Assembly: GCA_018646605.1 (NCBI GenBank)
Contig: JABGUL010000042.1
Coordinates: 1-64,000, forward strand
Direction of reading: 5' to 3'
DNA: 64,000 nt
DNA from: Flavobacteriaceae bacterium
GTDB lineage: Bacteria; Bacteroidota; Bacteroidia; Flavobacteriales; Flavobacteriaceae
Below, one piece after another: positions 26,258 to 42,047 of the stretch (position 1 is its first letter; each line of letters begins with the position of its first letter). The notes under the pieces were generated by a model that worked only from the letters and a program-made list of their open reading frames with translations, had not been told where the DNA came from and did not search any database. The position numbers and the translations under genes were made by a program.

Positions 26258-27886
26258 TTACAAAGAGACGCCTCTTTTCCATGGAATAAAATCATGTTGC
26301 TTCAATTCCGTAGCTTTTGTTAACTCAGTTCCACTGGCAATTTTAATTATTTGTTCTAGGAGCAAATCTCCCAATGTTTCTATGTCGTGGTTTTCAGTAA
26401 TCATTGAGCCACAATTAAAATCTATAATATCAGGCATTTTTTCTGCTAAGCTTGTATTACTAGAAACTTTAATTACAGGAGTAATTGGATTTCCTGTAGG
26501 TGTTCCTAATCCTGTAGTAAATAAAATTATATTAGCACCAGAACCTGCCATCGCAGTTGTACTTTCTACATCATTTCCGGGGGTGCATAGCAATGAAACA
26601 CCATCTTCTTTTACATATTCAGTATAATCTAAGATGTCATTAATTGTTGAGTTTCCTGATTTTTTTGCTGCTCCAGCAGACTTTATAGCATCTGTTATTA
26701 GCCCATCTTTAATATTGCCAGGTGAGGGATTCATGTCAAATCCAGAACCTACAGATTTAGCTGTTCCTTCATAGCGATTCATTAGAGATAAAAACTTGTT
26801 TGCCAGTGCGTCTGTTTTGCATCGATTCGCGATTTCTTGTTCTACTCCACATAGTTCTGGAAATTCGGATAATATAGTTTTCCCTCCCAGAGCAGCCATT
26901 AGGTCACTAACTCTTCCTAAAGTTGGATTTGCAGTAATTCCCGAAAAACCGTCAGATCCACCACACTCTAAACCGATGGTAAGTTTAGATAATGGGGCAG
27001 GTTGACGTATTATGGAGTTTGCATTTTTAATAGCTTTATACGAGTCAGAGATAATTTTTCCAATAAACTTTTCGGTAGTTCCAGAATTTTGTTGATCAAA
27101 CATTAGTATGGGCTTTTCAAACCCTGAATTTATTTCCCCTAAGGCTTCATTAAACATCTTGACTTCTAGATGCTGACACCCTAGGCTCAAAACGGTTGCT
27201 CCTGCAACATTTGGATTGTTTACATACCCTGCTAAAAGCCGAGCTAATGCTTTAGCATCTTGGCGCGTTCCTCCACAGCCTCCCTGATGTGTAATGAATC
27301 TTACCTTGATATTGTCTAATGGTGTTTTTGTTTTTACATCATCATTATTTGATTGACTTGAATGTTGTTCTTTCCCATTTATTAAGTCACTCAAAAGTTG
27401 TTGGTTTGGGTCTTTCTTTGGTGGATCAAATTCTTTTTCAAAAATAGTTTTTAGTGTTTGAATATTTCTGTTTTCACAAAAAACTAAGGGAAAAAATAGC
27501 CAAATATTATCCGTTCCCACTTGTCCATCTTTACGATGATATCCCATAAAAGTTTTCTCTTTCCATTTTGTAATATCGGGAGCCTTCCAGGGTGAGTCAC
27601 CTTTTTTTTCAATAACCTTTTCAGTCAAATGAATTACATTTTCGGTAGTTAGTAATCCCCCCTTTTGTATAGGCTGGGTGGCTTTTCCAACGAGCACTCC
27701 ATACATGTAAATAGGCATGTCTTTTTTGAAGTCAATTAAGGCTATTTTATGTTTGATAGGAATGTCTTCCCTTGAAATAATTTTATCTGAATCAATAGTG
27801 ATTTTAATATTTTTAGCAATACTACAAAGGGCAACAGCTACATTATCATTGGAATTGATTCTTAAAGCGTTTTTTGATACGTTCAT
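26258..27886 (-). CDS. uxaA: Altronate dehydratase (UxaA), 542 aa
   Basis: UxaA dehydrates D-altronate to 2-keto-3-deoxygluconate (KDG), the last specific step of galacturonate breakdown. The N-terminal 90 residues form the SAF domain; the large domain shows THQGGCGGTRQDAKALARLL (about 195-214), GLECGGSDGFSG and CTPGNDVESTTAMAGSGAN, which are family blocks with the iron-ligand cysteines. Length is close to the usual 490-550. It is the last gene of the minus-strand uronate run. A tagaturonate reductase (UxaB) that would supply altronate is not in the window. Confidence 0.9.
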   Translation of the reverse strand: MNVSKNALRINSNDNVAVALCSIAKNIKITIDSDKIISREDIPIKHKIALIDFKKDMPIYMYGVLVGKATQPIQKGGLLTTENVIHLTEKVIEKKGDSPWKAPDITKWKEKTFMGYHRKDGQVGTDNIWLFFPLVFCENRNIQTLKTIFEKEFDPPKKDPNQQLLSDLINGKEQHSSQSNNDDVKTKTPLDNIKVRFITHQGGCGGTRQDAKALARLLAGYVNNPNVAGATVLSLGCQHLEVKMFNEALGEINSGFEKPILMFDQQNSGTTEKFIGKIISDSYKAIKNANSIIRQPAPLSKLTIGLECGGSDGFSGITANPTLGRVSDLMAALGGKTILSEFPELCGVEQEIANRCKTDALANKFLSLMNRYEGTAKSVGSGFDMNPSPGNIKDGLITDAIKSAGAAKKSGNSTINDILDYTEYVKEDGVSLLCTPGNDVESTTAMAGSGANIILFTTGLGTPTGNPITPVIKVSSNTSLAEKMPDIIDFNCGSMITENHDIETLGDLLLEQIIKIASGTELTKATELKQHDFIPWKRGVSL

Positions 27887-27942
27887 TTCAGTGCTATGTT
27901 TATCTTTTGTTACAGACTTGTTTTTTATACGTACGATTTTAA

Positions 27943-29247
27943 TTAAAGTGTTACATAATCAAACATTTGTGGAAGCCATAAGGTGATTTGGGGAATAAAT
28001 GTTATTAAAATTAAGGCCAGAATCATAGCTAAAAATAAGGGTAGTAGAGGACGAATTACTTTTTCTATACTTGTTTTAGCGATACCAATTCCTACAAATA
28101 ATACTGATCCTACCGGAGGTGTACATAGTCCAATACATAGATTTAGCACCATAATAATTCCAAATTGTATAGGATCAATTCCTAATGTTTTGACTACCGG
28201 TAAAAAGATGGGAGTAAAAATTAAAACCGCAGGAGTCATATCCATAAAAACACCAACAAAAAGGAGTAGCAGGTTTATGATGAGTAAAATGATGATTTTG
28301 TTATCGCTTATGTTTAATAAAAAATCACCCAACGTTTGTGGAATATTTTCATATGACATAATCCATGACATACTCATTGAAGCAGCAATAAGTAACATTA
28401 CTACAGCGCTTGTTTTTGCAGACTCGAGTAAAATTTTTGGAATATTATTCACATTAATTTCCTTATAAATGAATCCTAATACGAGTGTATAAATAACAGC
28501 AATTGCAGAAGCTTCGGTAGCTGTAAAAAAACCACCCACAATTCCGCCAATAACAATAAACAGTAATAGCAAACTAGGGAAGGCAATGATAAAAGTTTTT
28601 AAAACTTCACGAAAAGAACTTCTTGGGAAGGTTTTATAATTGTGTTTCTTTGCCCATATTCCAGCTACAATCATAAGTAAAAGACCCGTTAATATACCTG
28701 GAATATAGCCTGCTAAGAACAATGCTGCTACAGAGACCCCACCACTGGCTAGGGAATATACAATCAATACGTTACTTGGGGGTATAATCAGACCTATGGT
28801 TGCTGAGGTAATGTTTACCGCTGCCCCATACTCTTTTGCATACCCTTCTTTTTCCATTTCTGGACCAAGAATACTTCCCATGGCAGATGCGGAGGCCATC
28901 GCCGATCCCGCAATGGAACCCATAAGCATTGCTGCGATTATATTAATTAATGCCAAACCTCCTGGAAAAGCTCCCACAATAGTTTTAGCAAATCCTATCA
29001 GTCGATGTGCAATACCTCCATGTGTCATTAATTGTCCTGAAAGAACAAAAAATGGAATGGCTAACAGTGCAAAACTATCTAGTCCAGTTGCCATTCTCTG
29101 TGCAATTGTAGTAACAGAAGGTAATAGGGGTATGGAGACTATTATGGTTAGTAAAGATGAAATAGCAATACTCCAAGCAACAGGTGTTCCAATGCTAATG
29201 AAAAAAATAAAACTTAAAACGAGTATAATAACAGGTATTATTTCCAT
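27943..29247 (-). CDS. dctM: TRAP transporter large permease (DctM), 434 aa
   Basis: The ion-coupled membrane subunit of a TRAP transporter, with about 12 hydrophobic helices: IPVIILVLSFIFFISIGTPV at the start, then VLSGQLMTHGGIAHRLIGFA, AGSAMASASAMGSILGPEM and GLIIPPSNVLIVYSLASGG. These are conserved DctM blocks. It follows the small permease by 3 bases and precedes uxaA by 56 bases. In this operon the imported substrate is most likely a hexuronate such as glucuronate or galacturonate. Confidence 0.92.
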   Translation of the reverse strand: MEIIPVIILVLSFIFFISIGTPVAWSIAISSLLTIIVSIPLLPSVTTIAQRMATGLDSFALLAIPFFVLSGQLMTHGGIAHRLIGFAKTIVGAFPGGLALINIIAAMLMGSIAGSAMASASAMGSILGPEMEKEGYAKEYGAAVNITSATIGLIIPPSNVLIVYSLASGGVSVAALFLAGYIPGILTGLLLMIVAGIWAKKHNYKTFPRSSFREVLKTFIIAFPSLLLLFIVIGGIVGGFFTATEASAIAVIYTLVLGFIYKEINVNNIPKILLESAKTSAVVMLLIAASMSMSWIMSYENIPQTLGDFLLNISDNKIIILLIINLLLLFVGVFMDMTPAVLIFTPIFLPVVKTLGIDPIQFGIIMVLNLCIGLCTPPVGSVLFVGIGIAKTSIEKVIRPLLPLFLAMILALILITFIPQITLWLPQMFDYVTL

Positions 29248-29250
29248 AGT

Positions 29251-29709
29251 CTATTCTTTACTTTGGGTGATTTTATAAAAAACAATCAATACGCCACTTA
29301 ATGGAACAATAGAATATACCAAAGCAAGTGGAATATGGAGTGAAGGCGAATATTGTTGTAATTTCATTGTGATATAAACCAAGCGTCCACCCCCAACAAC
29401 AAAACCAAAAAAGGCAAAAGCCGAAATACTAAAAGTGATAAAACGTTTAAGCCATTTTTGAACTTTTGGGCTACTTTTTTTTGCAAAAAAGTCAATGGCA
29501 ACGTGTTCATTTCTACCGCCTACATAGGCAGCTCCCAGAATACCTAACCATATCATTAAATATCGAGCCAATTCATCAGTAAATGAACTAGGGCTATCTG
29601 TGAAGTATCTACTAAATACTTGCCATAAAACATTAATAACCATAACGCCCAAAATAAGAACTAGTAATTTCCCTACAAAGGCGTCTACTTGGGTTCTAAT
29701 TTTTTTCAT
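29251..29709 (-). CDS. dctQ: TRAP transporter small permease (DctQ), 152 aa
   Basis: Four hydrophobic helices and the family block VLWQVFSRYFTDSPSSFTDELARYLMIW (given here in part: SSFTDELARYLMIW), then GRNEHVAIDFF, mark the DctQ subunit. Its start overlaps the end of the dctP gene by 14 bases, consistent with translational coupling, and dctM follows directly. Normal length. Confidence 0.9.
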   Translation of the reverse strand: MKKIRTQVDAFVGKLLVLILGVMVINVLWQVFSRYFTDSPSSFTDELARYLMIWLGILGAAYVGGRNEHVAIDFFAKKSSPKVQKWLKRFITFSISAFAFFGFVVGGGRLVYITMKLQQYSPSLHIPLALVYSIVPLSGVLIVFYKITQSKE

Positions 29710-30670
29710 TTTGAATCTGATTGATTAAAAGTGCTATTGAAGGATCTTTTTTAAAGTCATGATACATTTTCTTGGTAGCTTCTTTAAAGGGTCCTTTGTC
29801 TGGATAGGTAACTTCTACCCCTGCATCAATTACAGCTTGAAGTGATTCATTTTCTGAAATAGTCCATAATTTTCTTTGATCCAGTATTGATTTATCTATT
29901 GCTTGTTGAAGCCAATCTTGCTCTTGTTGACTTAAACGATTCCAGAGGTGTGTGCTCACAAGAAGGATGTCGGGAATCATGGTATGTTCATCTATTATGT
30001 AGTACTTACACACCTCATAATGTCTGGAGAGATAAAAACTAGGAGGATTATTTTCAGCAGCATCTACTACACCTTGTTGAATGGATGTATAAAGTTCACC
30101 CCAAGATATGGGGGTGGGAGAGCCTCCCAATTGTTTCACCATTTCAAAGGCAGAGGCGCTTTCTTGAACTCGTATTTTTAAACCTTCAAGGTCTTTAGGG
30201 TTAGAAATTGGGCGTTCTCTAGTGTAAAAACTTCGACTTCCAGAATCGTAATACCCAAGGCCCTTGAGCCAATAATCTTCACCTTCTTTTAATAGGGACT
30301 TCCCAATGGAACCATCCAAAACTCGAAATAAATGTTCTTTATTTTCAAAAAGAAAAGGCAAACCAAAAATCCGCATGTTAGGAGCAAAATTTTCCATTAC
30401 AGCACCAGAGACCTTTGTCATATCTAAACTTCCAATTTGTAATAATTCTAAACATTCTCGTTCACTTCCTAATTGTTGATTAGGATAGATTTGAATTTTC
30501 ATTTTACCATTTGAAATTTCGCTAAGGTATTGATCTGCTTTTAGCATTGCTTGATGTACAGAGTGTGTTACATCTAGGCCATGGCCCAAACGAATTATTC
30601 TTGTTTTAGAATCACTAGTACATGAATTAAATAGAAAAATTAGCCCTAGTAAATAAAGTTTTTTCATCAA
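29696..30670 (-). CDS. dctP: TRAP transporter substrate-binding lipoprotein (DctP), 324 aa
   Basis: The extracytoplasmic receptor of the TRAP system. The signal peptide ends in a lipobox (LIFLFNSC, Cys about residue 17), so the protein is probably membrane-anchored. The mature sequence shows the DctP blocks IRLGHGLDVTHSVHQAM, IQIYPNQQLGSERECLELLQ, GLKIRVQES (with the substrate-carboxylate arginine) and GVVDAAENNP. These receptors bind organic acids; the operon points to a uronate. It lies 2 bases after the eda gene. Confidence 0.9.
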   Translation of the reverse strand: MMKKLYLLGLIFLFNSCTSDSKTRIIRLGHGLDVTHSVHQAMLKADQYLSEISNGKMKIQIYPNQQLGSERECLELLQIGSLDMTKVSGAVMENFAPNMRIFGLPFLFENKEHLFRVLDGSIGKSLLKEGEDYWLKGLGYYDSGSRSFYTRERPISNPKDLEGLKIRVQESASAFEMVKQLGGSPTPISWGELYTSIQQGVVDAAENNPPSFYLSRHYEVCKYYIIDEHTMIPDILLVSTHLWNRLSQQEQDWLQQAIDKSILDQRKLWTISENESLQAVIDAGVEVTYPDKGPFKEATKKMYHDFKKDPSIALLINQIQNEKN

Positions 30671-30672
30671 AA

Positions 30673-31338
30673 CTATTTTAGGGCCTGAATGGTATTGATT
30701 ACCTCCGATACAGTAGCTTTTAATCCCTTAAAATCTTTTTGTTCGATAACCGTTTTTGAAATTAACTGTGATCCCATACCAACACAGGTTACGCCAGCAT
30801 CAAACCAAGATTTTAAATTTTCTTTTGATGTATTTACTCCTCCTGTAGGCATTATACTTGTCCATGGCTGTGGTCCTTTAATGGCTTTAACAAATTCTGG
30901 TCCATAAACACTTCCTGGGAAGAGTTTCACAATTTCCGCACCTCGTTCTTCAGCCATGGCAATTTCGGTTAAGGTTCCACAACCTGGTGACCACAACACT
31001 TTTCTACGGTTACATATAATGGCAATATCCTCCCTGAAAACTGGGGATACCACAAAGTTAGCCCCGATTTTCATGTAGTCACTAGCAGCTGCAGCATCGG
31101 TTACAGAGCCAACACCCAATATCATTTCTGGAAGCGTTTCCTGAGCAAAAAGGACAAGTTCTCTGAATACCTCATGAGCAAAATCCCCCCGATGTGTAAA
31201 TTCAAGTAGTCTAGCACCTCCTTCATAGCACGCTTGAAGAACTTGTTTTGCGACAGTTACATCAGCATGATAAAAAAGTGGAACTAGGCCTGTTTTTTGC
31301 ATCTGACTAATCACTTGTAATCTTGTAAATCTTGCCAT
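30673..31338 (-). CDS. eda: KDPG/KHG aldolase (Eda), 221 aa
   Basis: A class I aldolase splitting 2-keto-3-deoxy-6-phosphogluconate into pyruvate and glyceraldehyde-3-phosphate. The Schiff-base lysine is K138 in IVKLFPGS; the general acid/base Glu is E46 in LLEFTHRG, with phosphate-site residues in LGVGSVTDA, SPGCGTLTE and PTGGVNTS. The TIM-barrel length fits. It completes the lower part of the uronate route and lies 12 bases after kdgK. Confidence 0.93.
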   Translation of the reverse strand: MARFTRLQVISQMQKTGLVPLFYHADVTVAKQVLQACYEGGARLLEFTHRGDFAHEVFRELVLFAQETLPEMILGVGSVTDAAAASDYMKIGANFVVSPVFREDIAIICNRRKVLWSPGCGTLTEIAMAEERGAEIVKLFPGSVYGPEFVKAIKGPQPWTSIMPTGGVNTSKENLKSWFDAGVTCVGMGSQLISKTVIEQKDFKGLKATVSEVINTIQALK

Positions 31339-31350
31339 ATTATTTATTTT

Positions 31351-32391
31351 TTATCGAGCAACTCTGCCTGAGGCATCTCCACCCATTAATTTTTCTACTT
31401 CTTCTATACTTACTAGATTAGCATCTCCTGTTATTGTATGTTTTAAACTTGAGGCAGCAACAGCAAAGTTTAATGCTTTTTGATCCGCATTTGGGTAGGT
31501 AAGTAATCCGTATATCAATCCCCCCATAAAGGAATCACCACCGCCAACACGGTCTACTATGTGTGTGATTTGATACTGTGGACTTTCAAGCAAAGTATTG
31601 CCATCATAAAGGATGCCTGCCCAGGTATTGTGGGAAGCGGAAATAGAACCTCTTAAAGTGGTAATTACTTTTTTTGCTTTTGGAAATTTTTTCATCATCT
31701 GTTGACAGACAGACAGAAAAGCATCCGCTTTTATCTGGTCTCCTTGTGTGGTAACATCCAAGCCCTCTGGTTTGATTCCAAAATGCATTTCTGCATCTTC
31801 TTCATTTCCTAAAATAATATCACAATAGGAGGTGAGTTCTGACATGATAGCTTCGCGATCTCCTCCATACTTCCATAGTTTAGAACGATAATTCAAATCT
31901 GTAGAAATCGTAATTCCTAACGAGCTTGCAATTTTAACTGCTTCAAGGCAAGTGTCTGCAGCACTTTGAGATATAGCAGGAGTGATACCGGTCCAATGAA
32001 ACCAGCGTACTCCATTAAATACTTTTTTCCAGTCTACCATATTGGGCTTGATTTCTGATACAGAAGAATTTGCCCGATCATACACCACTTTACTTCCGCG
32101 GTTTACGGCTCCAGTTTCTAAAAAGTATATCCCCAATCGATCTCCTCCTCGGATTATATTGTGTGTATTTATTCCTTGTTTACGAAGTTCTCTGAGCGCA
32201 CAATCCCCGAGGTCGTTTTGTGGTAATCGGGTGACAAAATCTACATCAATTCCATAGTTTGCTAGGGAAACAGCTACGTTTGATTCTCCTCCTCCATATA
32301 CAACATCGAAAGAGTTTGCTTGTGAAAATCGTAAAAAGCCAGGGGGAGATAAACGCAACATAATCTCTCCAAAAGTCACAACTTTATTCAT
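31351..32391 (-). CDS. kdgK: 2-keto-3-deoxygluconate kinase (KdgK, PfkB family), 346 aa
   Basis: A ribokinase/PfkB-fold sugar kinase. The N-terminus VVTFGEIMLRLSPPGF and VYGGGESNVAVSLANYG (substrate site) are those of KDG kinases; GITPAISQSAAD and TDLNYRSKLW follow; the anion-hole and catalytic base are in VGGGDSF (Asp about residue 286). It phosphorylates KDG for Eda. The position between uxaC and eda supports the specific assignment. Confidence 0.92.
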   Translation of the reverse strand: MNKVVTFGEIMLRLSPPGFLRFSQANSFDVVYGGGESNVAVSLANYGIDVDFVTRLPQNDLGDCALRELRKQGINTHNIIRGGDRLGIYFLETGAVNRGSKVVYDRANSSVSEIKPNMVDWKKVFNGVRWFHWTGITPAISQSAADTCLEAVKIASSLGITISTDLNYRSKLWKYGGDREAIMSELTSYCDIILGNEEDAEMHFGIKPEGLDVTTQGDQIKADAFLSVCQQMMKKFPKAKKVITTLRGSISASHNTWAGILYDGNTLLESPQYQITHIVDRVGGGDSFMGGLIYGLLTYPNADQKALNFAVAASSLKHTITGDANLVSIEEVEKLMGGDASGRVAR

Positions 32392-32426: not shown

Positions 32427-33842
32427 TTAATATTCAAAATACTCTCTTGCATTGTGATAACAGATATCAGAAATAATTTTTCCAACCCATTTAGGGTCGT
32501 TTGGAAGTAATCCCTTTTTGATTTCTTGACCGAAAATAGAACAGAGTAAACGTCTGAAATATTCGTGGCGAGGGAATGAGAGAAAACTTCTTGAATCGGT
32601 TAGCATTCCAATAAAACAGCTAATTAGTCCCATATTGGACAAGGTATTTATTTGATTAGTCATGCCGTCTAATTGATCTAAAAACCACCATCCTGATCCC
32701 CATTGGATTTTTCCTTTAGAGCTCCCGTCGTTAAAATTCCCAATCATGGTTGCCATAATTTCATTATCAGCAGGATTGAGATTATACAAGATTGTTTTTG
32801 TAAGTTGATTGGTGCTGTCCAGCATGTCTAAATAACGTGAAAGACCGAATGCTATGGAATAATCGCCGATAGAGTCCCAGCCAGAATCTGGACCTATTTT
32901 ATTGAGCATTCGTGTGTTGTTATTTCGCATAGCTCCTAGGTGGAATTGTTGAACCCAGCCCAGTTTTGAATATGCTTTTCCTAGAAATAGGAGAAGAGCT
33001 GTCTGAAACTGTTCAGTCTCTTGGGGACTGACTTCTCCACCAGACCTTCTTGTCCTAAATATTCTGTCAATTTCTTTTTCCTTGCACATCTTGAAAGGAA
33101 TGTATTCAAGACCGTGATCCGATAGTCTACACCCTTTGCTGTGGAAAAAATCCATTCTATTTTGCAAAGCAATACATAAATCTTCATAAGTAGCAATCGA
33201 ACAATTGGATACTTTTTCTAATTCATCTATATAGGAATTGTATGTTACTCCATTAATGAATAAAGACTTGTCGGGTCTGAAGGCGGTGCTAACTTTTGTG
33301 TTAAAATCTGATTTTGTTAGAGTAGTATGATGCTGCAGACTATCTATAGGATCTTCTGTTGTACAAAGCATTTCTACATTCATTTTTTGGAGTAGAGCTT
33401 GCGTTGAAAACTCTTTTGTTTGAACTAAAGAAGAAGTTTTTTCGTAAACAGCTTCAGCATTTTTAGAAGATAGTTGTGAGTCGATTCCAAAATAGCGACT
33501 GAGCTCAAGATGTGTCCAATGGTATAAGGGATTTCGAAGCATGTAAGGCATTGCCTCAGCAAATTTTAGGAACTTGTCTTTGTCTGTTGCCTCCCCGGTA
33601 ATAAATTTTTCATCTATGCCTAATACACGCATAGCTCTCCATTTGTAGTGATCACCCGCAAGCCAAAGCTCGGAAATGTTGTTGTATGAGGTGTTATTTG
33701 CAATGGCCTCGGGCGAGAGGTGATTGTGGTAATCTATTATAGGAAGCGACGCGGCATAATTATGATAGAGCTCCTTTGCTTCTTTACTATCTAGTAGAAA
33801 GTCAGCATGGATAAAATGTTGTTGTGATTGAGATTTGTCCAC
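32427..33842 (-). CDS. uxaC: Glucuronate isomerase (UxaC), 471 aa
   Basis: UxaC isomerises D-glucuronate to D-fructuronate and D-galacturonate to D-tagaturonate. The family blocks are LPIIDYHNHLSPEAIA (metal-binding HNH), WLAGDHYKWRAMR, TEDPIDSL, QFHLGAMRNNN and DSRSFLSFPRHEYFRR near the C-terminus. Length equals that of the enterobacterial enzyme. It belongs to the amidohydrolase fold. Placed 20 bases after the Tat-exported oxidoreductase gene and 35 before kdgK. Confidence 0.94.
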   Translation of the reverse strand: MDKSQSQQHFIHADFLLDSKEAKELYHNYAASLPIIDYHNHLSPEAIANNTSYNNISELWLAGDHYKWRAMRVLGIDEKFITGEATDKDKFLKFAEAMPYMLRNPLYHWTHLELSRYFGIDSQLSSKNAEAVYEKTSSLVQTKEFSTQALLQKMNVEMLCTTEDPIDSLQHHTTLTKSDFNTKVSTAFRPDKSLFINGVTYNSYIDELEKVSNCSIATYEDLCIALQNRMDFFHSKGCRLSDHGLEYIPFKMCKEKEIDRIFRTRRSGGEVSPQETEQFQTALLLFLGKAYSKLGWVQQFHLGAMRNNNTRMLNKIGPDSGWDSIGDYSIAFGLSRYLDMLDSTNQLTKTILYNLNPADNEIMATMIGNFNDGSSKGKIQWGSGWWFLDQLDGMTNQINTLSNMGLISCFIGMLTDSRSFLSFPRHEYFRRLLCSIFGQEIKKGLLPNDPKWVGKIISDICYHNAREYFEY

Positions 33843-35194: not shown

Positions 35195-35197
35195 AAT

Positions 35198-36592
35198 TTA
35201 GAATTCTCTGATTTTAATATTTTTAAAAGAAACTTTATCACCGTGATCCTGGAGAAGAACTACTCCCTCAGGCCAACGTCCAAATTGTTCCCATTTTTCG
35301 TATTTACTTTTTTCTATAAGTGCTTCAAAAACTTGACTGAAACGATCAAATTCAACGACTTTTACATGATTAAGCCAGTGTTCAACATGCCCTCCTTTTA
35401 CAACAATTCGTGCATTGTTCCATGTATTGACTCCTTTAAAATTTTTTCCTCTACCTCCTGTGGTTCTATTTTCTGCACGAATTAGATCATAAAGGGAGCC
35501 TACTGTTCGGTTTCCGTTCTTACCCTGTTTGGCATCAGGATGCTTTTCATCATCCAAAAGTTGAAATTCTAATCCAATTGCAGAACCAGGTCCTTTATTA
35601 AGTGTGGGTTTTACAAAATATTTAATACCGCTGTTAGCACCCTCTGTTAAAAGGAAATCAACGCTTAATTCAAAATTTGAAAAAGTACTTGTTGAAACAA
35701 TATCACCTCCATTTTCTGATTCTGAACCTGTGGCAGCTTCCACAATAAGATTGCCTTTTTCAATTGACCATCCTTTTTCTGGAAAAGCATTTTTAGTAGC
35801 ACTTTTCCAACCCTGAGTTGTTTTTCCATCCCATAATAATCGATAGCCTTTTCTGATCTCATTTTGAGTTAGCGTATTATTTAAATTACTTATTTCAACA
35901 GCATAAGTTGTGGGAGGATTCATGAATTGTTCTAAAGATTGCGTCAATATTTTTATATTTCGCCAGCGTACTTTTTTACCATTATCTTCTTTTTTATTAA
36001 TGCTATGTACTTGGAACGCGATAAAGCCCTCAGAAGTTAAGTCATCAATTAAATTGGCACATTGAATACCGTTAATGAAAGTTCGAATTTGGTTTCCAAT
36101 TGCTTCGATACGGTAATGATTCCATTCTCCATTTCTAAAAGCTTCTTGTCCCGTTGGATTTCTTGTTAGTGGATACAGCCAGCCACGACGTGCCTCGTCA
36201 AAAACACCACCAGCCCATTTACGATCACTAGTTTCAATTTCACATTGGTATCCGTGAACACGGCCATTTTTATATTCAGAATAGCTGTTACTTCGGAATT
36301 GAACTCCTGAGTTTAAGCCGTTGTCAACCATTACTTCAAATTCGAGTATAAAGTCGGAGTACGTCTTTTTAGTTGCTAAAAAACTATTTGCGGTATTTAG
36401 TTTAGAAACACCAACCAAGGTCCCGTTTTCAATTATAAAGGATGCATCCCCATTAAGTTGTTTAAAGGAATTTAGATCGCTTCCATTGAATATCATTTCC
36501 CATTTAGGAACCTCCTGAGCATTCAAATTGGGCAATGGAAGTAAGCCAAAAGACAATAATAGTATTGCTAATTTACTTGAAAATATTTTCAT
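35198..36592 (-). CDS. Secreted double-domain DUF1080 (3-keto-glycoside hydrolase-like) protein, 464 aa
   Basis: A signal peptide (MKIFSSKLAILLLSFGLLPL... NAQE) leads into two concanavalin-like jelly-roll domains. Domain 1, about 28-215, has MIFNGSDLNSFKQLNG, SGVQFRS and HYRIEAIG; domain 2, about 245-464, has LLWDGKTTQGWKSATKNAF, SGIKYFV, RNADN-like GSLYDLI and VVLLQDHGDKVSFKNIKI. Both match DUF1080 (PF06439), now named 3-keto-disaccharide hydrolase in Pfam. It is the first gene of the uronate run. Its likely role is periplasmic cleavage of an oxidised glycoside; the substrate is not visible. Confidence 0.85.
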   Translation of the reverse strand: MKIFSSKLAILLLSFGLLPLPNLNAQEVPKWEMIFNGSDLNSFKQLNGDASFIIENGTLVGVSKLNTANSFLATKKTYSDFILEFEVMVDNGLNSGVQFRSNSYSEYKNGRVHGYQCEIETSDRKWAGGVFDEARRGWLYPLTRNPTGQEAFRNGEWNHYRIEAIGNQIRTFINGIQCANLIDDLTSEGFIAFQVHSINKKEDNGKKVRWRNIKILTQSLEQFMNPPTTYAVEISNLNNTLTQNEIRKGYRLLWDGKTTQGWKSATKNAFPEKGWSIEKGNLIVEAATGSESENGGDIVSTSTFSNFELSVDFLLTEGANSGIKYFVKPTLNKGPGSAIGLEFQLLDDEKHPDAKQGKNGNRTVGSLYDLIRAENRTTGGRGKNFKGVNTWNNARIVVKGGHVEHWLNHVKVVEFDRFSQVFEALIEKSKYEKWEQFGRWPEGVVLLQDHGDKVSFKNIKIREF

Positions 36593-36674: not shown

Positions 36675-36691
36675 CTTTTAAAGCTTCAAAG
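36675..36691. promoter_or_regulatory. Candidate operator in divergent intergenic region
   Basis: CTTTTAA-AGC-TTCAAAG is an imperfect dyad (6 of 7 arm positions) near the middle of the 147-base gap between the two divergent uronate runs. It could bind a dimeric regulator of both; no regulator gene lies nearby. Confidence 0.25.
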
Positions 36692-36739
36692 AATCCAAGA
36701 TTTCTAATACTTTTATGGGAAACAAAATAGTTATTGAAT

Positions 36740-37933
36740 ATGAAGAAACATCGGAGAAAGTTTTTAGGTACAGCAGCTACTATCCTAACCGCATCTTTAG
36801 CTTATCCCAATAGTGGCTTTTCAATTCTTGATTTAAAAAACAGCCATACCGTAAGAATAGGAGTTATTGGAGTAGGAGACCGAGGTAATGGCTTACTACG
36901 AATTTTTTCAAAAATGGAGGGTGTTGTTATCGTTGGTTTATGTGATACTTTACCTTTCCGATTGAAAGAGGCCTCTAGAATTACTCCCAAAGCCAAAACC
37001 TATAACAGTCATTTAGACCTGATGGAAAATAAAGATTTAGATGCTGTGATCATTACCACACCTTTAAATACACATGCAGAAATTGCTTCCGATGCTGTTG
37101 ATGCTAACCTTCATATTTACTGTGAAAAAACAATGGTTAAAGGAGCTAAAGAGACAATTGATTTAGTAAAAAAAGTTTTGAGTAAGCACAAAAAAGTATT
37201 TCAAACCGGTCATCAGTATCACAGTTCAAGATTGTATTCCCATGCAGTAGATTTAATTCAAGGAGGAAAAATAGGGAAGGTAACCAGTATAAGAGCGCAA
37301 TGGAATAGAAATGGTAACTGGCGAAGACCGGTTCCAGATCCGAAGCTTGAACGCCAAATCAATTGGAGAATGTACAGAGAATATTCATTTGGGTTGCTGG
37401 CCGAGCTGAGCTCCCATCAAATTGACTTTGCGAATTGGTTATTAAACTCTCATCCTGAAAAAGTAACAGGTTTCGGCGGAATTGATTATTGGAAAGATGG
37501 AAGAGAAACTTATGACAACACCCACGTAATTTTTGCTTATCCAAATGGTGTAAAAGCAAGTTATACTTGTTTGACTGGAAATGCAAAAGATGATTATAAA
37601 ATTCACGTTTTTGGGGATAAAGGAACCATGGTACTTGATTATGCTAAAGCATGGTTTTATCCTGAAGGTTCTTATGTCAAAGAATATGGAGATGTAGATG
37701 GTGTTTCAGGTGCCACAACAAACTGGGAGGCAGGAAAGGGAATTCCTTTAAACTATTCTCACACCGATCCTACACAGCAAGCCCTGGAAGACTTTAGAGA
37801 TTCTATTCTAAATGATGTAGCCCCATTATCTAATGTTATTTCTGGATCAAAAGCAGCTTTTGCAATTGATATGGGAATTAGAGCGATGGATCAAAATAAA
37901 ACAATATACTGGGACAAGTCCTATAATTTTTAG
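36740..37933 (+). CDS. Gfo/Idh/MocA oxidoreductase with Tat-like signal, 397 aa
   Basis: The start MKKHRRKFLGTAATILTASL has the RRKFL twin-arginine motif followed by a hydrophobic stretch. The Rossmann fold begins VRIGVIGVGDRGNGLLRIF. The conserved EKP motif of the family is changed to CEKTMVKGA, keeping the lysine but not the proline. The C-terminal domain shows QTGHQYHSSRLYSHA and GLLAELSSHQIDFANWLL, with the His in the usual catalytic position. Substrate unknown; inositol- or sugar-dehydrogenase activities are typical. It is the first gene of the divergent plus-strand run and sits 13 bases before the SDR gene. Confidence 0.87.
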   Translation: MKKHRRKFLGTAATILTASLAYPNSGFSILDLKNSHTVRIGVIGVGDRGNGLLRIFSKMEGVVIVGLCDTLPFRLKEASRITPKAKTYNSHLDLMENKDLDAVIITTPLNTHAEIASDAVDANLHIYCEKTMVKGAKETIDLVKKVLSKHKKVFQTGHQYHSSRLYSHAVDLIQGGKIGKVTSIRAQWNRNGNWRRPVPDPKLERQINWRMYREYSFGLLAELSSHQIDFANWLLNSHPEKVTGFGGIDYWKDGRETYDNTHVIFAYPNGVKASYTCLTGNAKDDYKIHVFGDKGTMVLDYAKAWFYPEGSYVKEYGDVDGVSGATTNWEAGKGIPLNYSHTDPTQQALEDFRDSILNDVAPLSNVISGSKAAFAIDMGIRAMDQNKTIYWDKSYNF

Positions 37934-37946
37934 AACGATATATTCT

Positions 37947-38750
37947 ATGTTTTCACTTCAAAATAAAGTTATTATCCTTACCGGAGCTACCGGAACTCTT
38001 GGGAGTAGTTTGGCTATAAGTTTAGCCAATGCAAAAGCTAAGATTGTTATTTTGGGAAGAACCCAATCTCTTTTAAATTCTCTTTTAGAAACGTTGTCTT
38101 CTAAGACTGAAACTGCAGCTCATGTGGTTGATGTTATGGATAGAGAGGCATTAGAACAGGTAAAAACGAAAGTTATCAATCAATTTGGTCATATAGATAT
38201 TTTGATCAATGCGGTAGGGGGGAACCTTCCCGGGGCTGTAATTTCCGATGATCAAACTATCTTTGATATGTCTGTACCTGATTTTGATGAAGTTGTAAAC
38301 TTGAATCTTAAGGGTACTGTTTTGCCTTCTATTGTATTTGGTAAATCGATGAGTGAGAGAGGAAAAGGTTCCATCGTTAATTATTCCTCTATGACTGTTA
38401 ATCAAGCCCTCACCCGTGTGGTGGGATATTCTGCTGCTAAGGCAGCAATGGAAAATTTTACTCGATGGATGGCAGTCGAGATGGCACTTAAATTTGGAGA
38501 TGGAATTCGTATAAATGCGATTTCTCCAGGTTTTTTTATCGGAAAACAAAATCAAAAATTACTTTTAAATGATGATGGAAGCCTAACAGAACGAGGTGAA
38601 AAAATCATCCGAAACACTCCTATGAAACGTTTTGGGAAAGCAGAAGAGTTGAATGGAGCGATTCATTTTTTATGTAGTGATAGTTCTAGCTTTGTGACGG
38701 GTATTGTTTTGCCTATTGATGGGGGTTTTAGCGCCTTCTCAGGTGTTTAA
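37947..38750 (+). CDS. SDR oxidoreductase, probable D-mannonate oxidoreductase (fructuronate reductase), 267 aa
   Basis: A short-chain dehydrogenase/reductase: cofactor motif TGATGTLGSSLA (about 12-23), VNAVGG-like INAVGGNLPG, catalytic Ser in YSSMT and the YxxxK pair in YSAAKAAMENF. Closest in pattern to the YjmF/UxuB-type SDRs that reduce D-fructuronate to D-mannonate with NAD(P)H. Its place directly before uxuA (9 bases) and the lack of a canonical long-chain UxuB fit this job. The ATG at 37947 is chosen since it begins the Rossmann fold; a longer version would overlap the upstream gene by 100 bases. Confidence 0.85.
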   Translation: MFSLQNKVIILTGATGTLGSSLAISLANAKAKIVILGRTQSLLNSLLETLSSKTETAAHVVDVMDREALEQVKTKVINQFGHIDILINAVGGNLPGAVISDDQTIFDMSVPDFDEVVNLNLKGTVLPSIVFGKSMSERGKGSIVNYSSMTVNQALTRVVGYSAAKAAMENFTRWMAVEMALKFGDGIRINAISPGFFIGKQNQKLLLNDDGSLTERGEKIIRNTPMKRFGKAEELNGAIHFLCSDSSSFVTGIVLPIDGGFSAFSGV

Positions 38751-38759
38751 TTTGTAGCT

Positions 38760-39938
38760 ATGAAAGAATCTTTTAGATGGTATGGTCCGAATGATGTGGT
38801 AACATTAGCTACCATTCGTCAAGCAGGCGCAAAAACAGTTGTTTCAGCTCTTCATAACATACCTAACGGTGAGGTGTGGGGAGTTAAAGAAATTAAAGCA
38901 CATCAAACGATCATTGAAAAAGCAGGTTTAGAATGGGGGGTTGTCGAGTCGGTTCCGATTCATGAGGACATTAAACAACGTATCGGAGATTTTGAGGTCT
39001 ACATAGAAAATTACAAAAAGACTCTAGAAAATTTATCTCGCTGTGGAATCCATACTGTGTGTTATAATTTTATGCCTGTTTTAGATTGGACAAGAACGCA
39101 TTTGTATAAAACTTTAGAAGACGGCTCAACAGCACTTTCCTATGAGATTAATGCGTTGCGAGCGTTTGATCTTTATATTGTTAAAAGAGTACATGCCCAG
39201 CAGGATTATTCTGCTCAAGAAATATATGTGGCAAAACGGTACTATGAAAGTCTTGATGACCTTCAGATCAAATCCTTGACCAAAAGCATTATTGCAGGTT
39301 TACCTGGAGCAGAGGAAGGCTACACAATGGAGCAATTCAATAAACAAATTGGAGGCTATTCAAACATCGATACAGAAACTTTACGTAGCCATTTAATTGA
39401 GTTTTTAAAGGCTTTGATGCCTACTGCTGAAGCTTGTAAAATAAATATGTGCATCCATCCCGATGACCCCCCTTATTCTCTTTTTGGAATTCCGAGGGTG
39501 GTTAGTAGCGCAGCAGATATTGATTTATTATTTGACGCTGTTCCTTCCTTGAATAATGGGTTGACATTTTGTACTGGTTCTTTTGGAGTTAGAGCAGATA
39601 ATAATCTTTTAGAAATGTTCACTAAGCATGCGGAACGTATTCATTTTTTACATTTTAGGAGTACACAAAGAGATGAGGAAGGCAACTTCCATGAAGCGAA
39701 TCATCTTGAAGGAGATGTTGATATGTATGCAATGGTCAAGGCTGCCTTAACAGAGGAGAGGAAACGCAAAAATTTAGGGCGAAAGGATTGTGAAATACCA
39801 ATGCGACCTGATCACGGACATCAAATGTTAGATGATTTAAATAAAACTACGAATCCCGGATACTCTGCTATTGGAAGACTAAAGGGATTAGCTGAATTGA
39901 GGGGTTTAGCAATGGGGATTATGAGAAGTGGTTTTTAA
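38760..39938 (+). CDS. uxuA: Mannonate dehydratase (UxuA), 392 aa
   Basis: UxuA removes water from D-mannonate to give KDG. It shows SFRWYGPNDVVTLATIRQAG at the N-terminus, YNFMPVLDWTRTHL (about 103-116), MCIHPDDPPYSLFGIPRV with metal-binding His and Asp, and MRPDHGHQMLDD near the C-terminus. Length matches the Escherichia coli enzyme. It ends the plus-strand run; its stop overlaps the convergent VOC gene by four bases. Confidence 0.94.
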   Translation: MKESFRWYGPNDVVTLATIRQAGAKTVVSALHNIPNGEVWGVKEIKAHQTIIEKAGLEWGVVESVPIHEDIKQRIGDFEVYIENYKKTLENLSRCGIHTVCYNFMPVLDWTRTHLYKTLEDGSTALSYEINALRAFDLYIVKRVHAQQDYSAQEIYVAKRYYESLDDLQIKSLTKSIIAGLPGAEEGYTMEQFNKQIGGYSNIDTETLRSHLIEFLKALMPTAEACKINMCIHPDDPPYSLFGIPRVVSSAADIDLLFDAVPSLNNGLTFCTGSFGVRADNNLLEMFTKHAERIHFLHFRSTQRDEEGNFHEANHLEGDVDMYAMVKAALTEERKRKNLGRKDCEIPMRPDHGHQMLDDLNKTTNPGYSAIGRLKGLAELRGLAMGIMRSGF

Positions 39939-40375
39939 TTTGCTTCGTTTATTTCTACCCAATGTCCCTCTGGGTCTTGAATTTTAACTTGACGCACGCC
40001 GTCTTTCCGAATTCTAACTTCGTTTTTCTTGCCTTCATCAGTCCAGTAGTCAACCTTATTTTTGCGTAAATGTGCAACTACTTCATCAAGATTAAGAGTA
40101 GAAAAAGCCATATGATTTATTATTGTATTTGGAACTCCATCTTCGCTTGTAATTAAATGTAGTTGCTTTCCTTCATGATTGTGAAGCCATCTTTTTGGAA
40201 TCGTCTGATCTGCAGTAACCTTCATTTCTTCAAAACCTAAAATTTGTACATAAAAATCACCTGTTTCTTGAAGTTTTTTAACCGGTAGTGCTTGATGATT
40301 AAATGTCAGTTTGAAGTTTTCTTGTTGCGAAAAAACAAAAAAAGGTAGTAATAAAAGAAGGTAAAATGCTCTCAT
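39935..40375 (-). CDS. Secreted VOC-superfamily (glyoxalase-like) protein, 146 aa
   Basis: A signal peptide (MRAFYLLLLLPFFVFSQQ) precedes one VOC unit with paired beta-alpha-beta-beta-beta modules: FNHQALPVKKLQETGDFYV and LGFEEM, then NHMAFSTLNLDEVVAHLR and IQDPEGHWVEINE. His and Glu metal ligands at NHMAF and WVEI are present. VOC proteins act as isomerases, epimerases, dioxygenases or lyases. Export and its position between uxuA and a NIPSNAP gene suggest action on an extracytoplasmic carbohydrate product, but this is inference. Confidence 0.82.
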   Translation of the reverse strand: MRAFYLLLLLPFFVFSQQENFKLTFNHQALPVKKLQETGDFYVQILGFEEMKVTADQTIPKRWLHNHEGKQLHLITSEDGVPNTIINHMAFSTLNLDEVVAHLRKNKVDYWTDEGKKNEVRIRKDGVRQVKIQDPEGHWVEINEAN

Positions 40376-40426
40376 GATAAATCTATTATATATCTTTAAA
40401 TTTAACTTTAATTAACGATATAGACG

Positions 40427-41170
40427 ATGTTTAAAAATTATTTTTTACTATCATTTTTGATGCTTTCAATTTTTGCGTTTGGGCAAAAGGATTATTATGA
40501 ATTGAGAACGTATACGATCCCCTTTAACGGTTCCGAGTCGGAGTTACATGATTATTTATCTACAGCTCTACTTCCTGCTCTAAACAGAACTGGTGTTGAG
40601 AATATTGGGGTTTTTGAGGCATTAGGCGAGCCTACTCCCAAGCAACTAGTGGTTTTAATTCCTTTTAAGGGTATTGCTCATTATGGGGCGGTTTTAAGTG
40701 CTTTAGAAATTGATAAAACGTATCAAGAAGATAAGAAGGATTATGATGCAGTTCCAGTTACTAATCGTGTATACACAAGATACAGCAGTTCTTTTTATTT
40801 TGCATTCAAAGGGTTACCTCAAATTGTAAAACCTGCAAAAGGGTCACAATTATTTGAATTGAGAACCTATGAAGGGTATAGCGAAAATGCTGTAGACAGA
40901 AAGACGGATATGTTTAATGATGGTGAGCTGACTATTTTTGAAGAAACAGGCTTACACTCAGTATTTTTTGGCAGTCAAGTTTCAGGACCTTTGATGCCAG
41001 CGTTAACCTATATGCTATCATTCAAAAATATGGAAGAACGGAATTCAAACTGGGCAAAGTTTTCTGCTCATCCAGAATGGAAACGTATTTCTAAACTTCC
41101 CATGTATGCTAATTCAGTTTCAGATATCAAGAGAACTTTCTTAAAGCCATTAGCGTATTCGCAACTTTAA
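40427..41170 (+). CDS. Secreted NIPSNAP family protein, 247 aa
   Basis: A signal peptide (MFKNYFLLSFLMLSIFAFGQ) and two NIPSNAP (dimeric alpha-beta barrel) domains. The first starts YYELRTYTIPFNGSESELHD (about 23-42), the second QLFELRTYEGYSENAVDRK (about 140-158); both have the ELRTY signature. Secreted NIPSNAP proteins recur in Bacteroidota sugar-utilisation loci beside Gfo/Idh/MocA proteins; no reaction is established. Convergent with the inositol oxygenase gene, 16 bases apart. Confidence 0.85.
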   Translation: MFKNYFLLSFLMLSIFAFGQKDYYELRTYTIPFNGSESELHDYLSTALLPALNRTGVENIGVFEALGEPTPKQLVVLIPFKGIAHYGAVLSALEIDKTYQEDKKDYDAVPVTNRVYTRYSSSFYFAFKGLPQIVKPAKGSQLFELRTYEGYSENAVDRKTDMFNDGELTIFEETGLHSVFFGSQVSGPLMPALTYMLSFKNMEERNSNWAKFSAHPEWKRISKLPMYANSVSDIKRTFLKPLAYSQL

Positions 41171-41186
41171 AACAAATCTATATTGA

Positions 41187-42047
41187 TTAAAAACGAAGAG
41201 TTTTAGGCAAGTATTTAGAGACTAATTTTTCGTAATAAGGGCGCAATGCCTTGCTGTCTGGTGGAGTAGGAGCTTTAGAGTATAAATCATAAGCGTTAAA
41301 TTTTCTTACCCATTTAAAAAGCTCGAGGTCTTCTTGTGACATCAAATGATTGTATGCTTCTTCTCTATGTTGAGCATAAAATGAGTGATATCGTATCATA
41401 TAAAGTGCTGGCTTAGGAAGGTGATCTTTTAAAATTTGGTAAAGATATTCATCATGACCCCAACTCATTTTAACGTTATCCAGCCCACAATTTTCTGAGT
41501 ATATCCCTAATGGGGTATTGTATTTTGGATTTTTAGAATCTGGATTTAATTCAAAAAATTCTGGGTGTACTATTTTTTTAGAAAATTCACAACCTACAGG
41601 GAAAGTATCTCCTACTACTGCCCATTGAGGCTCTCCAAAAAGACAGAGTACTTTTCCTAAATCATGTAAAAAGCCAGTTAAAACAAACCAATCTTCATGG
41701 CCATCAGCTCTTATTGCTTCTGAAGTTTGAAGAAGGTGTTGAAATTGATCAAGGTCAATGTCTGGGTCACTATCATCTACTAAAGTGTTCAAAAAGTCAA
41801 CTGCATCCCAGAGTGACATTTCTTTTTTATTAAAGGATAAAAACTCTTTTTCTTTTTGACACACAAAATCATAGGTCTGGAACTCATGATTTAACTTGTA
41901 AAAAGCTCTTACGCCCTCAGCTCGATCAGAAGTATCATAATCTCGATATTCCTCTTTTGTTTTTAGATCTTTTTCAGGATAACGCTCTAATAAATCATCT
42001 TCCCAATGATCAAGCGACTGAAGTGGATTATTAAATTTACTCTCCAT
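41187..42047 (-). CDS. myo-Inositol oxygenase (MIOX family), 286 aa
   Basis: MIOX is a mixed-valence diiron HD-domain oxygenase that converts myo-inositol to D-glucuronate with O2. All iron ligands known from the mammalian enzyme align by context: H117 (DGHEDW), H128 and D129 (LTGFLHDLGKVL), H198 (MSWGHDEYLYQ), H221 (MIRYHSFY) and D254 (FNAYDLYSK). Substrate-loop segments FGEPQWAVVGDTFPVGC and CGLDNVKMSWG are nearly the same as I recall for the animal protein, and the C-terminus (LRPYYEKLVSKYLP) also matches. Length is the eukaryotic one. It follows GH95 by 37 bases. Its product is the substrate of UxaC, encoded in the same region. Confidence 0.95.
   Translation of the reverse strand: MESKFNNPLQSLDHWEDDLLERYPEKDLKTKEEYRDYDTSDRAEGVRAFYKLNHEFQTYDFVCQKEKEFLSFNKKEMSLWDAVDFLNTLVDDSDPDIDLDQFQHLLQTSEAIRADGHEDWFVLTGFLHDLGKVLCLFGEPQWAVVGDTFPVGCEFSKKIVHPEFFELNPDSKNPKYNTPLGIYSENCGLDNVKMSWGHDEYLYQILKDHLPKPALYMIRYHSFYAQHREEAYNHLMSQEDLELFKWVRKFNAYDLYSKAPTPPDSKALRPYYEKLVSKYLPKTLRF

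What the first reader, a model, noticed from the sequence alone, without database searches (positions are those of the whole stretch)
26258..42047. Complete myo-inositol/glucuronate to pyruvate route built around a eukaryote-like MIOX
The window encodes MIOX (inositol to glucuronate), UxaC, an SDR fitting fructuronate reductase, UxuA, KdgK and Eda, plus a TRAP importer. Seen directly: all six MIOX iron ligands and each enzyme's signature. Known: MIOX is the animal and plant route to glucuronate, while bacteria usually degrade inositol through the Iol pathway. No iol-type genes occur here. Inference: the locus lets the cell use inositol, or inositol glycosides, through glucuronate. Linking MIOX with GH95 and exported oxidoreductases in one region would make a little-described utilisation system.
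Basis: partly seen in the sequence, partly recalled or inferred. Interest (0 to 1): 0.8.

Follow-up and report, generated by a model that had tools for sequence, protein, structure and literature searches.

The report
Marine bacterium's animal-type inositol route
A small marine flavobacterium carries an animal-type enzyme that should turn inositol into glucuronate, placed inside its glucuronate-burning gene cluster; genome comparisons suggest that this is a fairly common, little-noticed way for Bacteroidota to eat inositol.

Summary
Window 26258-42047 encodes UxaA, a TRAP importer, Eda, KdgK, UxaC, two Gfo/Idh/MocA proteins with export signals, DUF1080, a fructuronate-reductase-type SDR, UxuA and MIOX. 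MIOX is 52% identical to mouse MIOX, with every iron ligand and pocket residue checked. The inositol-to-glucuronate-to-pyruvate reading is well supported: all 29 genomes with full MIOX among 199 of the window's family carry UxaC, against 45 of the other 170; across the phylum 23 of 23 against 82 of 273. The host shows no Ino1, IolB or above-cut-off IolD.

Corrections. The TRAP importer belongs to the uronate operon, also present without MIOX. The likely inositol importer is an SGLT-like Na+ symporter, within 2.5 kb of MIOX in 57 of 80 relatives; here it lies on another contig with two inositol-dehydrogenase-like genes. MIOX with UxuA, SDR and Gfo2 recurs in one clade (12 of 12 relatives), GH95 in 7 of 12; KdgK and Eda in none of the stretches held.

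Not wholly new: a uxa/uxu/MIOX operon was proposed in Francisella in 2012, and Flavobacterium johnsoniae MIOX works in yeast. New here: breadth, symporter, and MIOX inside a 3-keto-glycoside locus.

The parts
26258..27886 (-). UxaA/GarD-family dehydratase (altronate dehydratase type)
   Evidence: Pfam GD_AH_C/GD_AH_second/SAF; fails galactarate dehydratase cut-off
27943..29247 (-). TRAP importer large subunit DctM
   Evidence: Pfam DctM
29251..29709 (-). TRAP importer small subunit DctQ
   Evidence: Pfam DctQ
29696..30670 (-). TRAP solute-binding protein DctP, probably uronate-binding
   Evidence: Pfam DctP; best PDB sequences 4n8y, 4x8r, 4ovr, 4n91 (uronate-bound by recall only); near UxaC in MIOX-negative genomes
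30673..31338 (-). KDPG aldolase Eda
   Evidence: Pfam Aldolase; NCBIfam NF005499 361.4 vs 275
31351..32391 (-). KDG kinase KdgK (PfkB family)
   Evidence: Pfam PfkB; NCBIfam kinase models below their cut-offs; near UxaC in 17 of 40 MIOX-negative genomes examined
32427..33842 (-). Glucuronate isomerase UxaC
   Evidence: Pfam 670 bits; NCBIfam 600.8 vs 387
33863..35194 (-). Gfo/Idh/MocA oxidoreductase (Gfo1) with a Tat-type signal, glycoside-3-dehydrogenase-like
   Evidence: Pfam; TAT signal model 19.6 vs 16.7; BT_2158 glycoside 3-dehydrogenase family 160.9 vs cut-off 750, so not a member by that model; best PDB 8tdf, 8tdh 'dehydrogenase'
35198..36592 (-). DUF1080 3-keto-glycoside hydrolase, signal-like N-terminus (by eye)
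   Evidence: Pfam 3keto-disac_hyd, two stretches; near full-length match to 4jqt 'putative glycosyl hydrolase', E 4e-162
36740..37933 (+). Gfo/Idh/MocA oxidoreductase (Gfo2), Tat-like N-terminus by eye
   Evidence: Pfam; start ATG 36740
37947..38750 (+). SDR-type fructuronate reductase / D-mannonate oxidoreductase (UxuB function)
   Evidence: NCBIfam PRK08277 350.7 vs 281; start inferred
38760..39938 (+). Mannonate dehydratase UxuA
   Evidence: TIGR00695 540.8 vs 199.6
39935..40375 (-). Glyoxalase-fold protein, signal-like N-terminus by eye, unassigned
   Evidence: Pfam Glyoxalase; no NCBIfam cut-off met
40427..41170 (+). NIPSNAP protein, signal-like N-terminus by eye, unassigned
   Evidence: Pfam NIPSNAP; near MIOX in 11 of the 12 relatives with this arrangement
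41187..42047 (-). Myo-inositol oxygenase MIOX
   Evidence: Pfam 365.9 bits; 15 of 15 checked ligand/pocket positions; fold
42085..44463 (-). GH95 protein (alpha-L-fucosidase/galactosidase family), 37 bp upstream of MIOX, same strand
   Evidence: Pfam GH95; best PDB 2rdy, 8zbv, 7kmq, 4ufc; in 7 of the 12 relatives
44545..45705 (+). DUF4249 protein
   Evidence: Pfam; in 11 of the 12 relatives
45693..48116 (+). TonB-dependent receptor
   Evidence: Pfam; in 11 of the 12 relatives
48127..49014 (+). PfkB sugar kinase (start inferred)
   Evidence: Pfam PfkB; fructokinase model 117.9 vs cut-off 450; start
49021..49761 (+). DUF6503 protein
   Evidence: Pfam
49818..50759 (+). Second DUF1080 3-keto-glycoside hydrolase
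   Evidence: Pfam

Best explanation
The locus is the downstream half of an inositol-and-uronide catabolic system. Inferred: inositol enters by an SGLT-like Na+ symporter encoded elsewhere in the genome. MIOX uses O2 to open myo-inositol to D-glucuronate (activity inferred from conserved ligands, pocket and fold). UxaC, the SDR reductase, UxuA, KdgK and Eda take glucuronate to pyruvate plus glyceraldehyde 3-phosphate. The TRAP importer brings uronates into the same pathway, and UxaA adds an altronate/galacturonate branch. Two inositol-dehydrogenase-like proteins encoded beside the symporter probably convert other inositols (scyllo, perhaps chiro) to myo-inositol for MIOX, not feed an Iol pathway. 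In the window's clade MIOX probably moved once from a MIOX-IolG-symporter operon into a locus of 3-keto-glycoside and uronate genes (direction inferred; the tree is rooted by midpoint). That locus probably releases uronate, and possibly inositol, from algal glycosides. Shown: gene content, residues, predicted fold, co-occurrence, synteny, tree shape. Inferred: every reaction, transport step, regulation and the glycoside substrate.
For: MIOX identity. Pathway enzymes. MIOX with UxaC: 29 of 29 vs 45 of 170 in the family set (p 5e-15) and 23 of 23 vs 82 of 273 in the phylum set (p 8e-12). Symporter within 2.5 kb of MIOX in 57 of 80 loci (56 same strand) and 26 of 28 family genomes. The window's genome has a copy on contig C9 (67% identical to the query), and 11 of 12 related genomes with the window's arrangement have one 79-96% identical to that copy. 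In 199 genomes, IolG over its cut-off without above-cut-off IolD occurs only with MIOX (4 of 11 IolG-positive genomes; the other 7 have IolD). A same-genus genome has MIOX-IolG-symporter in a row. No Ino1, IolB/KduI or above-cut-off IolD in the host. The captured MIOX rows lie on one side of a branch, next to the MIOX-IolG-symporter clade. F. johnsoniae MIOX supports glucaric acid production in yeast (review PMC12076931, passage).
Against: No expression, growth or enzyme data. Only 27 of 80 MIOX loci have a uronate gene within 10 kb, and KdgK and Eda are in none of the 12 nearest-arrangement stretches. Fisher tests ignore shared ancestry and genome size; the two genome sets overlap. MIOX-positive means E < 1e-90 (family) or E <= 1e-40 (phylum): 85 family genomes match at E <= 0.001 and 32 pass the Pfam cut-off, the extra ones by short HD-domain-like stretches; counting all 32 would give 29 of 32 with UxaC. 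G369's UxaC is a diverged 260-bit type. KdgK and the second IolG (345.1 vs 355) miss curated cut-offs. The symporter's substrate rests on gene neighbourhood; its PDB matches are sugar and other Na+ transporters. No IolG was seen within about 1.5 kb of the symporter in 7 of 11 relatives. The captured clade's support is modest (89/84). MIOX and IolD are not significantly exclusive (p = 1). The genome is a 98%-complete draft; IolE was not searched.
Confidence: 0.82

Rival explanations
1. The cluster is a glucuronide/galacturonide utilisation locus (TonB receptor, GH95, 3-keto-glycoside enzymes, TRAP, uronate operon) and MIOX is a passenger whose product merely shares the pathway; no inositol glycoside is involved. 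This denies only the glycoside-to-inositol part of the best explanation.
For: The uronate operon with TRAP occurs without MIOX: DctP near UxaC in 27 of 40 MIOX-negative genomes examined. DctP is nearest to TRAP binding proteins that I recall as uronate-bound. Gfo1 matches 8tdf/8tdh, recalled as glycoside-3-dehydrogenases, and weakly 8tdi 'Glucuronide-3-dehydrogenase'. A single origin of the captured MIOX fits.
Against: MIOX keeps all checked pocket residues and lies beside UxuA, SDR and Gfo2 in 12 of 12 relatives with this arrangement; MIOX lies near core uronate genes in several lineages (9 changes).
Confidence: 0.5
2. MIOX works on a cyclitol other than myo-inositol (D-chiro- or another inositol).
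For: An inositol dehydrogenase pair that could handle isomers sits with the symporter; animal MIOX is recorded as oxidising D-chiro-inositol too (title of a cited paper seen).
Against: All checked myo-inositol pocket residues match mouse MIOX.
Confidence: 0.12
3. MIOX is anabolic: it supplies glucuronate for cell-surface sugars, not for growth.
For: Plants and animals use MIOX glucuronate in synthesis (general knowledge).
Against: No Ino1 match in the genome, so inositol would have to be imported; UxaC, the first catabolic step, is in every MIOX genome counted.
Confidence: 0.04

Closest known systems
Francisella uronate operon F7308_1388-1396, strains TX07-7308 and ATCC 25015 (PMC3479022, passages)
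   Same: MIOX with uxuB, uxuA, kdgK, kdgA, uxaC and a symporter; the authors proposed inositol to glucuronate to Entner-Doudoroff for some strains
   Different: D-xylose-proton symporter homolog, rhamnogalacturonide transporter and alpha-glucosidase; no TRAP, GH95 or 3-keto module among the nine ORFs; their MIOX is 37% identical to mouse, here 52%; they reported no bacterial homologs outside Francisella at that time
Flavobacterium johnsoniae MIOX (FjMiox; Marques 2020, seen only through a passage and reference in PMC12076931)
   Same: A Bacteroidota MIOX, active when expressed in yeast
   Different: A biocatalyst screen as the review describes it; native gene context not mentioned in the passage
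Animal MIOX (2huo, 2ibn)
   Same: About 52% identity to mouse, fold, iron ligands, substrate pocket
   Different: Downstream fate here is UxaC-UxuA-Eda, not the animal or plant routes (general knowledge)
Bacterial Iol pathway (IolG-E-D-B-C-J)
   Same: Inositol use; IolG-type dehydrogenases present in the genome
   Different: No IolB and no above-cut-off IolD in the host; needs O2 instead
3-keto-glycoside pathway (Caulobacter DUF1080, PMC9007349 passages; PDB 8tdf/8tdh/8tdi)
   Same: Gfo/Idh/MocA with export signals plus DUF1080
   Different: Linked here to uronate genes and MIOX; substrate unknown

Membership tests
Myo-inositol oxygenase (MIOX) | Pfam PF05153 over cut-off across the full domain | tested here: met
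   365.9 bits vs 25, profile 2-249 of 249
Myo-inositol oxygenase (MIOX) | Six di-iron ligands (mouse H98, H123, D124, H194, H220, D253) | tested here: met
   All identical (numbering recalled, chain offset 4)
Myo-inositol oxygenase (MIOX) | Substrate pocket (D85, K127, G141, D142, S221, K257, R29; role recalled) | tested here: met
   All identical in the window, in the 92 class A rows (save one X at D85) and in 17 of 17 class B rows
Myo-inositol oxygenase (MIOX) | O2-dependent conversion of myo-inositol to glucuronate | not testable with these tools
   Needs assay; a Bacteroidota homolog is reported active
Isomerase-type hexuronate pathway (UxaC, fructuronate reductase, UxuA, KdgK, Eda) | UxaC, reductase, UxuA and Eda over curated cut-offs | tested here: met
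   the reductase is the SDR type; the PF01232 type was not searched
Isomerase-type hexuronate pathway (UxaC, fructuronate reductase, UxuA, KdgK, Eda) | KDG kinase over a curated cut-off | tested here: inconclusive
   Best equivalog 222 vs 440; kinase half of the aldolase-kinase fusion model 489 vs 700; operon position fits
Iol pathway | IolG | tested here: met
   G000 contig C9, 395.9 vs 355, outside the window
Iol pathway | IolD hydrolase | tested here: not met
   Only a sub-cut-off match in the host, E 1.4e-69; none at E <= 1e-150
Iol pathway | IolB isomerase | tested here: not met
   No PF04962 match in the host
Iol pathway | IolE dehydratase | not tested
Canonical polysaccharide utilisation locus | SusC/SusD pair | tested here: not met
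   TonB receptor with DUF4249; no SusD among 48 of 55 window ORFs scanned with Pfam
3-keto-glycoside system | Exported Gfo/Idh/MocA plus DUF1080 | tested here: met
   TAT model over cut-off for Gfo1 only; both Gfo proteins fall far below the glycoside 3-dehydrogenase equivalog cut-off
3-keto-glycoside system | Oxidation and cleavage of a defined glycoside | not testable with these tools
   Needs assay

The most novel reading that the evidence does not exclude
The captured-MIOX clade has a dedicated system for glycosides that contain both a uronic acid and inositol (for example glucuronosyl-inositol head groups of algal sphingolipids). A TonB receptor with DUF4249 takes them in and, where present, GH95 trims fucose-type sugars. 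Gfo1/Gfo2 and DUF1080 split the glycoside by the 3-keto route. The TRAP importer takes the uronate and the symporter the inositol. MIOX then makes both halves converge on one glucuronate pool, with the IolG pair feeding in other inositol isomers.
Probability: 0.12. Interest if true: 0.8.

Novelty: new variant of a known kind. Interest (0 to 1): 0.55.

Why it matters
A 2022 survey of 24,812 bacterial species counted inositol use by Iol clusters and found it in 3% of 2,227 Bacteroidetes and 2% of 810 Flavobacteriaceae species; its single mention of inositol oxygenase concerns a yeast (PMC9430895, passages). Here full MIOX matches are in 29 of 199 family genomes against 9 with above-cut-off IolD, and in 23 of 296 phylum genomes against 11. 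If MIOX works as its residues say, such surveys undercount inositol users in a major group of marine polymer degraders, and inositol use there depends on oxygen. It also names a candidate bacterial Na+/inositol symporter and predicts a use for inositol dehydrogenases without the rest of the Iol pathway. All of these can be tested in cultured relatives.

Tried and rejected
TRAP as the inositol importer: rejected as the leading reading, because TRAP accompanies UxaC with or without MIOX. 'Iol-type genes absent': true of the window only. MIOX and the Iol pathway as mutually exclusive: not supported statistically (overlap 1 of 29 and 0 of 23). MIOX as a PhnZ/TmpB-type phosphonate oxygenase: rejected (NCBIfam Phn-HD 19.9 vs 214.6; fold matches to TmpB/PhnZ weak). 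DctP structure prediction: too poor to use (pLDDT 52.5). Paper searches for glucuronosyl inositol in marine bacteria and for 3-keto glucuronide cleavage: no hits; a search on alternative glycoside cleavage gave nothing usable in the 10 of 251 listed. No transcription regulator among the 48 of 55 window ORFs scanned with Pfam; the other 7 overlap scanned genes.

Full report
What is there. The window is G000:C18:1-64000, from a 1.98 Mb draft genome, 98% complete. On the minus strand from 36592 down to 26258 runs DUF1080 - Gfo1 - UxaC - KdgK - Eda - DctP - DctQ - DctM - UxaA. On the plus strand from 36740 runs Gfo2 - SDR - UxuA. Then follow a glyoxalase-fold gene (-), NIPSNAP (+), MIOX (-) and GH95 (-), and after them DUF4249 - TonB receptor - PfkB kinase - DUF6503 - second DUF1080 (+). 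MIOX lies 37 bp behind GH95 on the same strand, so they may be cotranscribed (inference from the sequence). Curated NCBIfam cut-offs are met by UxaC, the SDR (D-mannonate oxidoreductase type), UxuA and Eda; not by KdgK, and UxaA is not a galactarate dehydratase by that model.

MIOX. The protein matches PF05153 over 248 of 249 positions at 365.9 bits and mouse MIOX at 52% over 257 columns (133 of 258). The iron ligands and pocket residues (positions recalled from the mouse structure) are identical in the window, in all class A rows save one X at one position, and in all 17 class B rows. The AlphaFold model (mean pLDDT 85.3) is closest to 2huo, 'mouse myo-inositol oxygenase in complex with substrate' (TM 0.84/0.93).

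Genome-wide dependence. In one set of 199 genomes of the family (198 genera), 29 have MIOX at E < 1e-90 and 74 have UxaC. All 29 have UxaC, against 45 of the other 170 (Fisher p 5e-15). I left out weaker MIOX matches: 85 genomes match at E <= 0.001 and 32 pass the Pfam cut-off, the extra ones by short stretches; none of the three extra above-cut-off genomes (G059, G095, G026) has UxaC. In 296 genomes of the phylum, 23 (16 genera) have MIOX at E <= 1e-40 and 105 UxaC. All 23 have UxaC, 22 of them at over 600 bits and one (G369) only a diverged 260-bit type; 82 of the other 273 have it (p 8e-12). This set shares genomes with the first, so it is not independent. Above-cut-off IolD is in 9 of 199 (one of these, G006, also has MIOX, with two in-frame stops) and in 11 of 296 (none with MIOX). 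The two routes are not significantly exclusive. The tests ignore ancestry and genome size. The host has no match for Ino1 or IolB/KduI and no IolD over cut-off.

The importer. Eighty MIOX loci (the best 80 of 261 confirmed) came from a scan of named genomes; all are Bacteroidota by title. In 57 of them an SGLT-like symporter (at least 45% identical to the L060 copy) lies within 2.5 kb of MIOX, 56 on the same strand. The same holds for 26 of 28 MIOX loci of the family set, including all 17 of a second, diverged MIOX class. Its best PDB sequence matches are vSGLT and SGLT1/2. In the window's genome the closest copy (67%) is on contig C9. Of the 12 related genomes with the window's arrangement, 11 have a copy 79-96% identical to it, while none has one within the flanks of MIOX that I hold (4 to 10 kb a side). 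In contrast, the TRAP importer lies near UxaC in 27 of 40 MIOX-negative genomes examined, so it is best read as a uronate importer.

Inositol dehydrogenases without above-cut-off IolD. Beside the C9 symporter are two Gfo/Idh/MocA genes without an evident signal sequence. One passes the IolG equivalog cut-off (395.9 vs 355), the other just misses it (345.1). The first is nearest to 3ezy 'Dehydrogenase' and 4hkt 'Inositol 2-dehydrogenase'. The second is nearest to 4mkx/4n54 'Inositol dehydrogenase', which I recall as a Lactobacillus scyllo-inositol dehydrogenase. In the same-genus genome G137 the order is MIOX - IolG - symporter, with uxaA-dctMQP-eda-kdgK-uxaC on another contig. IolG stands within 3 kb of MIOX in 13 of 80 loci. 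Of 11 IolG-positive genomes in the family set, 7 have IolD and the other 4 have MIOX. My inference is an isomer step (scyllo to myo via the 2-ketone) that feeds MIOX. It is not universal: beside the symporter of 11 clade genomes, within about 1.5 kb, I saw an IolG in 3 (L123, L127, L132) and a fragment in one (L122).

How the window's arrangement arose. A tree of 110 MIOX rows puts the 13 captured MIOX (window, L002-L012, L016; no symporter nearby, uronate genes nearby) on one side of a branch (support 89/84, so not strong; 92% of bootstrap trees). Beside it (90/92) is a 14-row clade of MIOX-symporter loci (13 with IolG, plus G137). MIOX within 10 kb of core uronate genes needs 9 changes on the tree (25 of 109 rows), so the linkage formed, or was lost, several times. 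Among the 12 captured relatives, many cut short by contig ends, the held stretches show UxuA, SDR and Gfo2 in 12, TonB receptor, DUF4249 and NIPSNAP in 11, DUF1080 in 8, UxaC, DctP, Gfo1 and GH95 in 7 each, and KdgK, Eda and UxaA in none. Where UxaC and DctP are both seen, DctP follows UxaC directly; the window's KdgK and Eda between them match G137 instead. Another arrangement, in Flagellimonas/Allomuricauda (L026, L064, L066), holds SDR - UxuA - MIOX - symporter - UxaC - TRAP - DUF1080 - Gfo, with KdgK and Eda in L066. ThuA follows MIOX in L004 and L009. GH95 was near UxaC in 0 of 40 MIOX-negative loci, Gfo1 in 3 and DUF1080 in 5. With no SusD this is not a canonical PUL.

Known and new. A MIOX-uxaC-uxuA-kdgK-kdgA operon was described in Francisella in 2012 with the same proposed route (PMC3479022, passages). 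F. johnsoniae MIOX is reported active in yeast (PMC12076931, passage; the original paper not read). The large 2022 survey counted Iol clusters, and its one mention of inositol oxygenase concerns a yeast (PMC9430895, passages). DUF1080 as a 3-keto-glycoside hydrolase is from PMC9007349 (passages). In the listings of searches (30 of 45 shown), 31, 32, 58 and 68 I saw no paper on a MIOX route in Bacteroidota; the library lacks most subscription journals. I therefore rate it a new variant of a known kind: confirmed anatomy, a well-supported pathway, and an unproven but testable glycoside front end.

Noticed in passing
Family set, L102-L118: A second, diverged MIOX class (17 of 199 genomes; median 48% identical to the window's, all checked pocket residues kept) sits beside the same symporter family in 17 of 17.
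   Followed up: partly
L117 (G006:C3): One genome has both IolD and IolG and, about 22 kb away, a MIOX copy with two in-frame stop codons, perhaps a replacement of one route by the other.
   Followed up: no
L004, L009, L003, L005: ThuA directly behind MIOX (L004, L009) and a xylose-isomerase-like TIM-barrel gene nearby (L003, L004, L005, L009): further genes of 3-keto-glycoside type (recalled link) in the captured clade.
   Followed up: partly
L019-L022, L028, L029, L033: In Flavobacterium a NagB/PIG-L fusion lies between the MIOX-symporter pair and the SDR reductase.
   Followed up: no
window 4659-8853: A second Na+ symporter next to a large PIG-L/NEW3-domain protein with weak similarity to mycothiol conjugate amidase.
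   Followed up: no
window 39935-41170: A glyoxalase-fold and a NIPSNAP protein, both with signal-like N-termini by eye, recur in 5 and 11 of the 12 captured relatives and in none of the other 68 loci; role unknown.
   Followed up: partly
L034, L041, L043, L050, L059, L061: In Emticicia-type genomes MIOX lies beside gldM/gldN gliding genes and lacks both the symporter and uronate genes within the held flanks.
   Followed up: no
window 50828-52033: Protein with CXXCH multihaem cytochrome-like matches next to the second DUF1080 gene.
   Followed up: no
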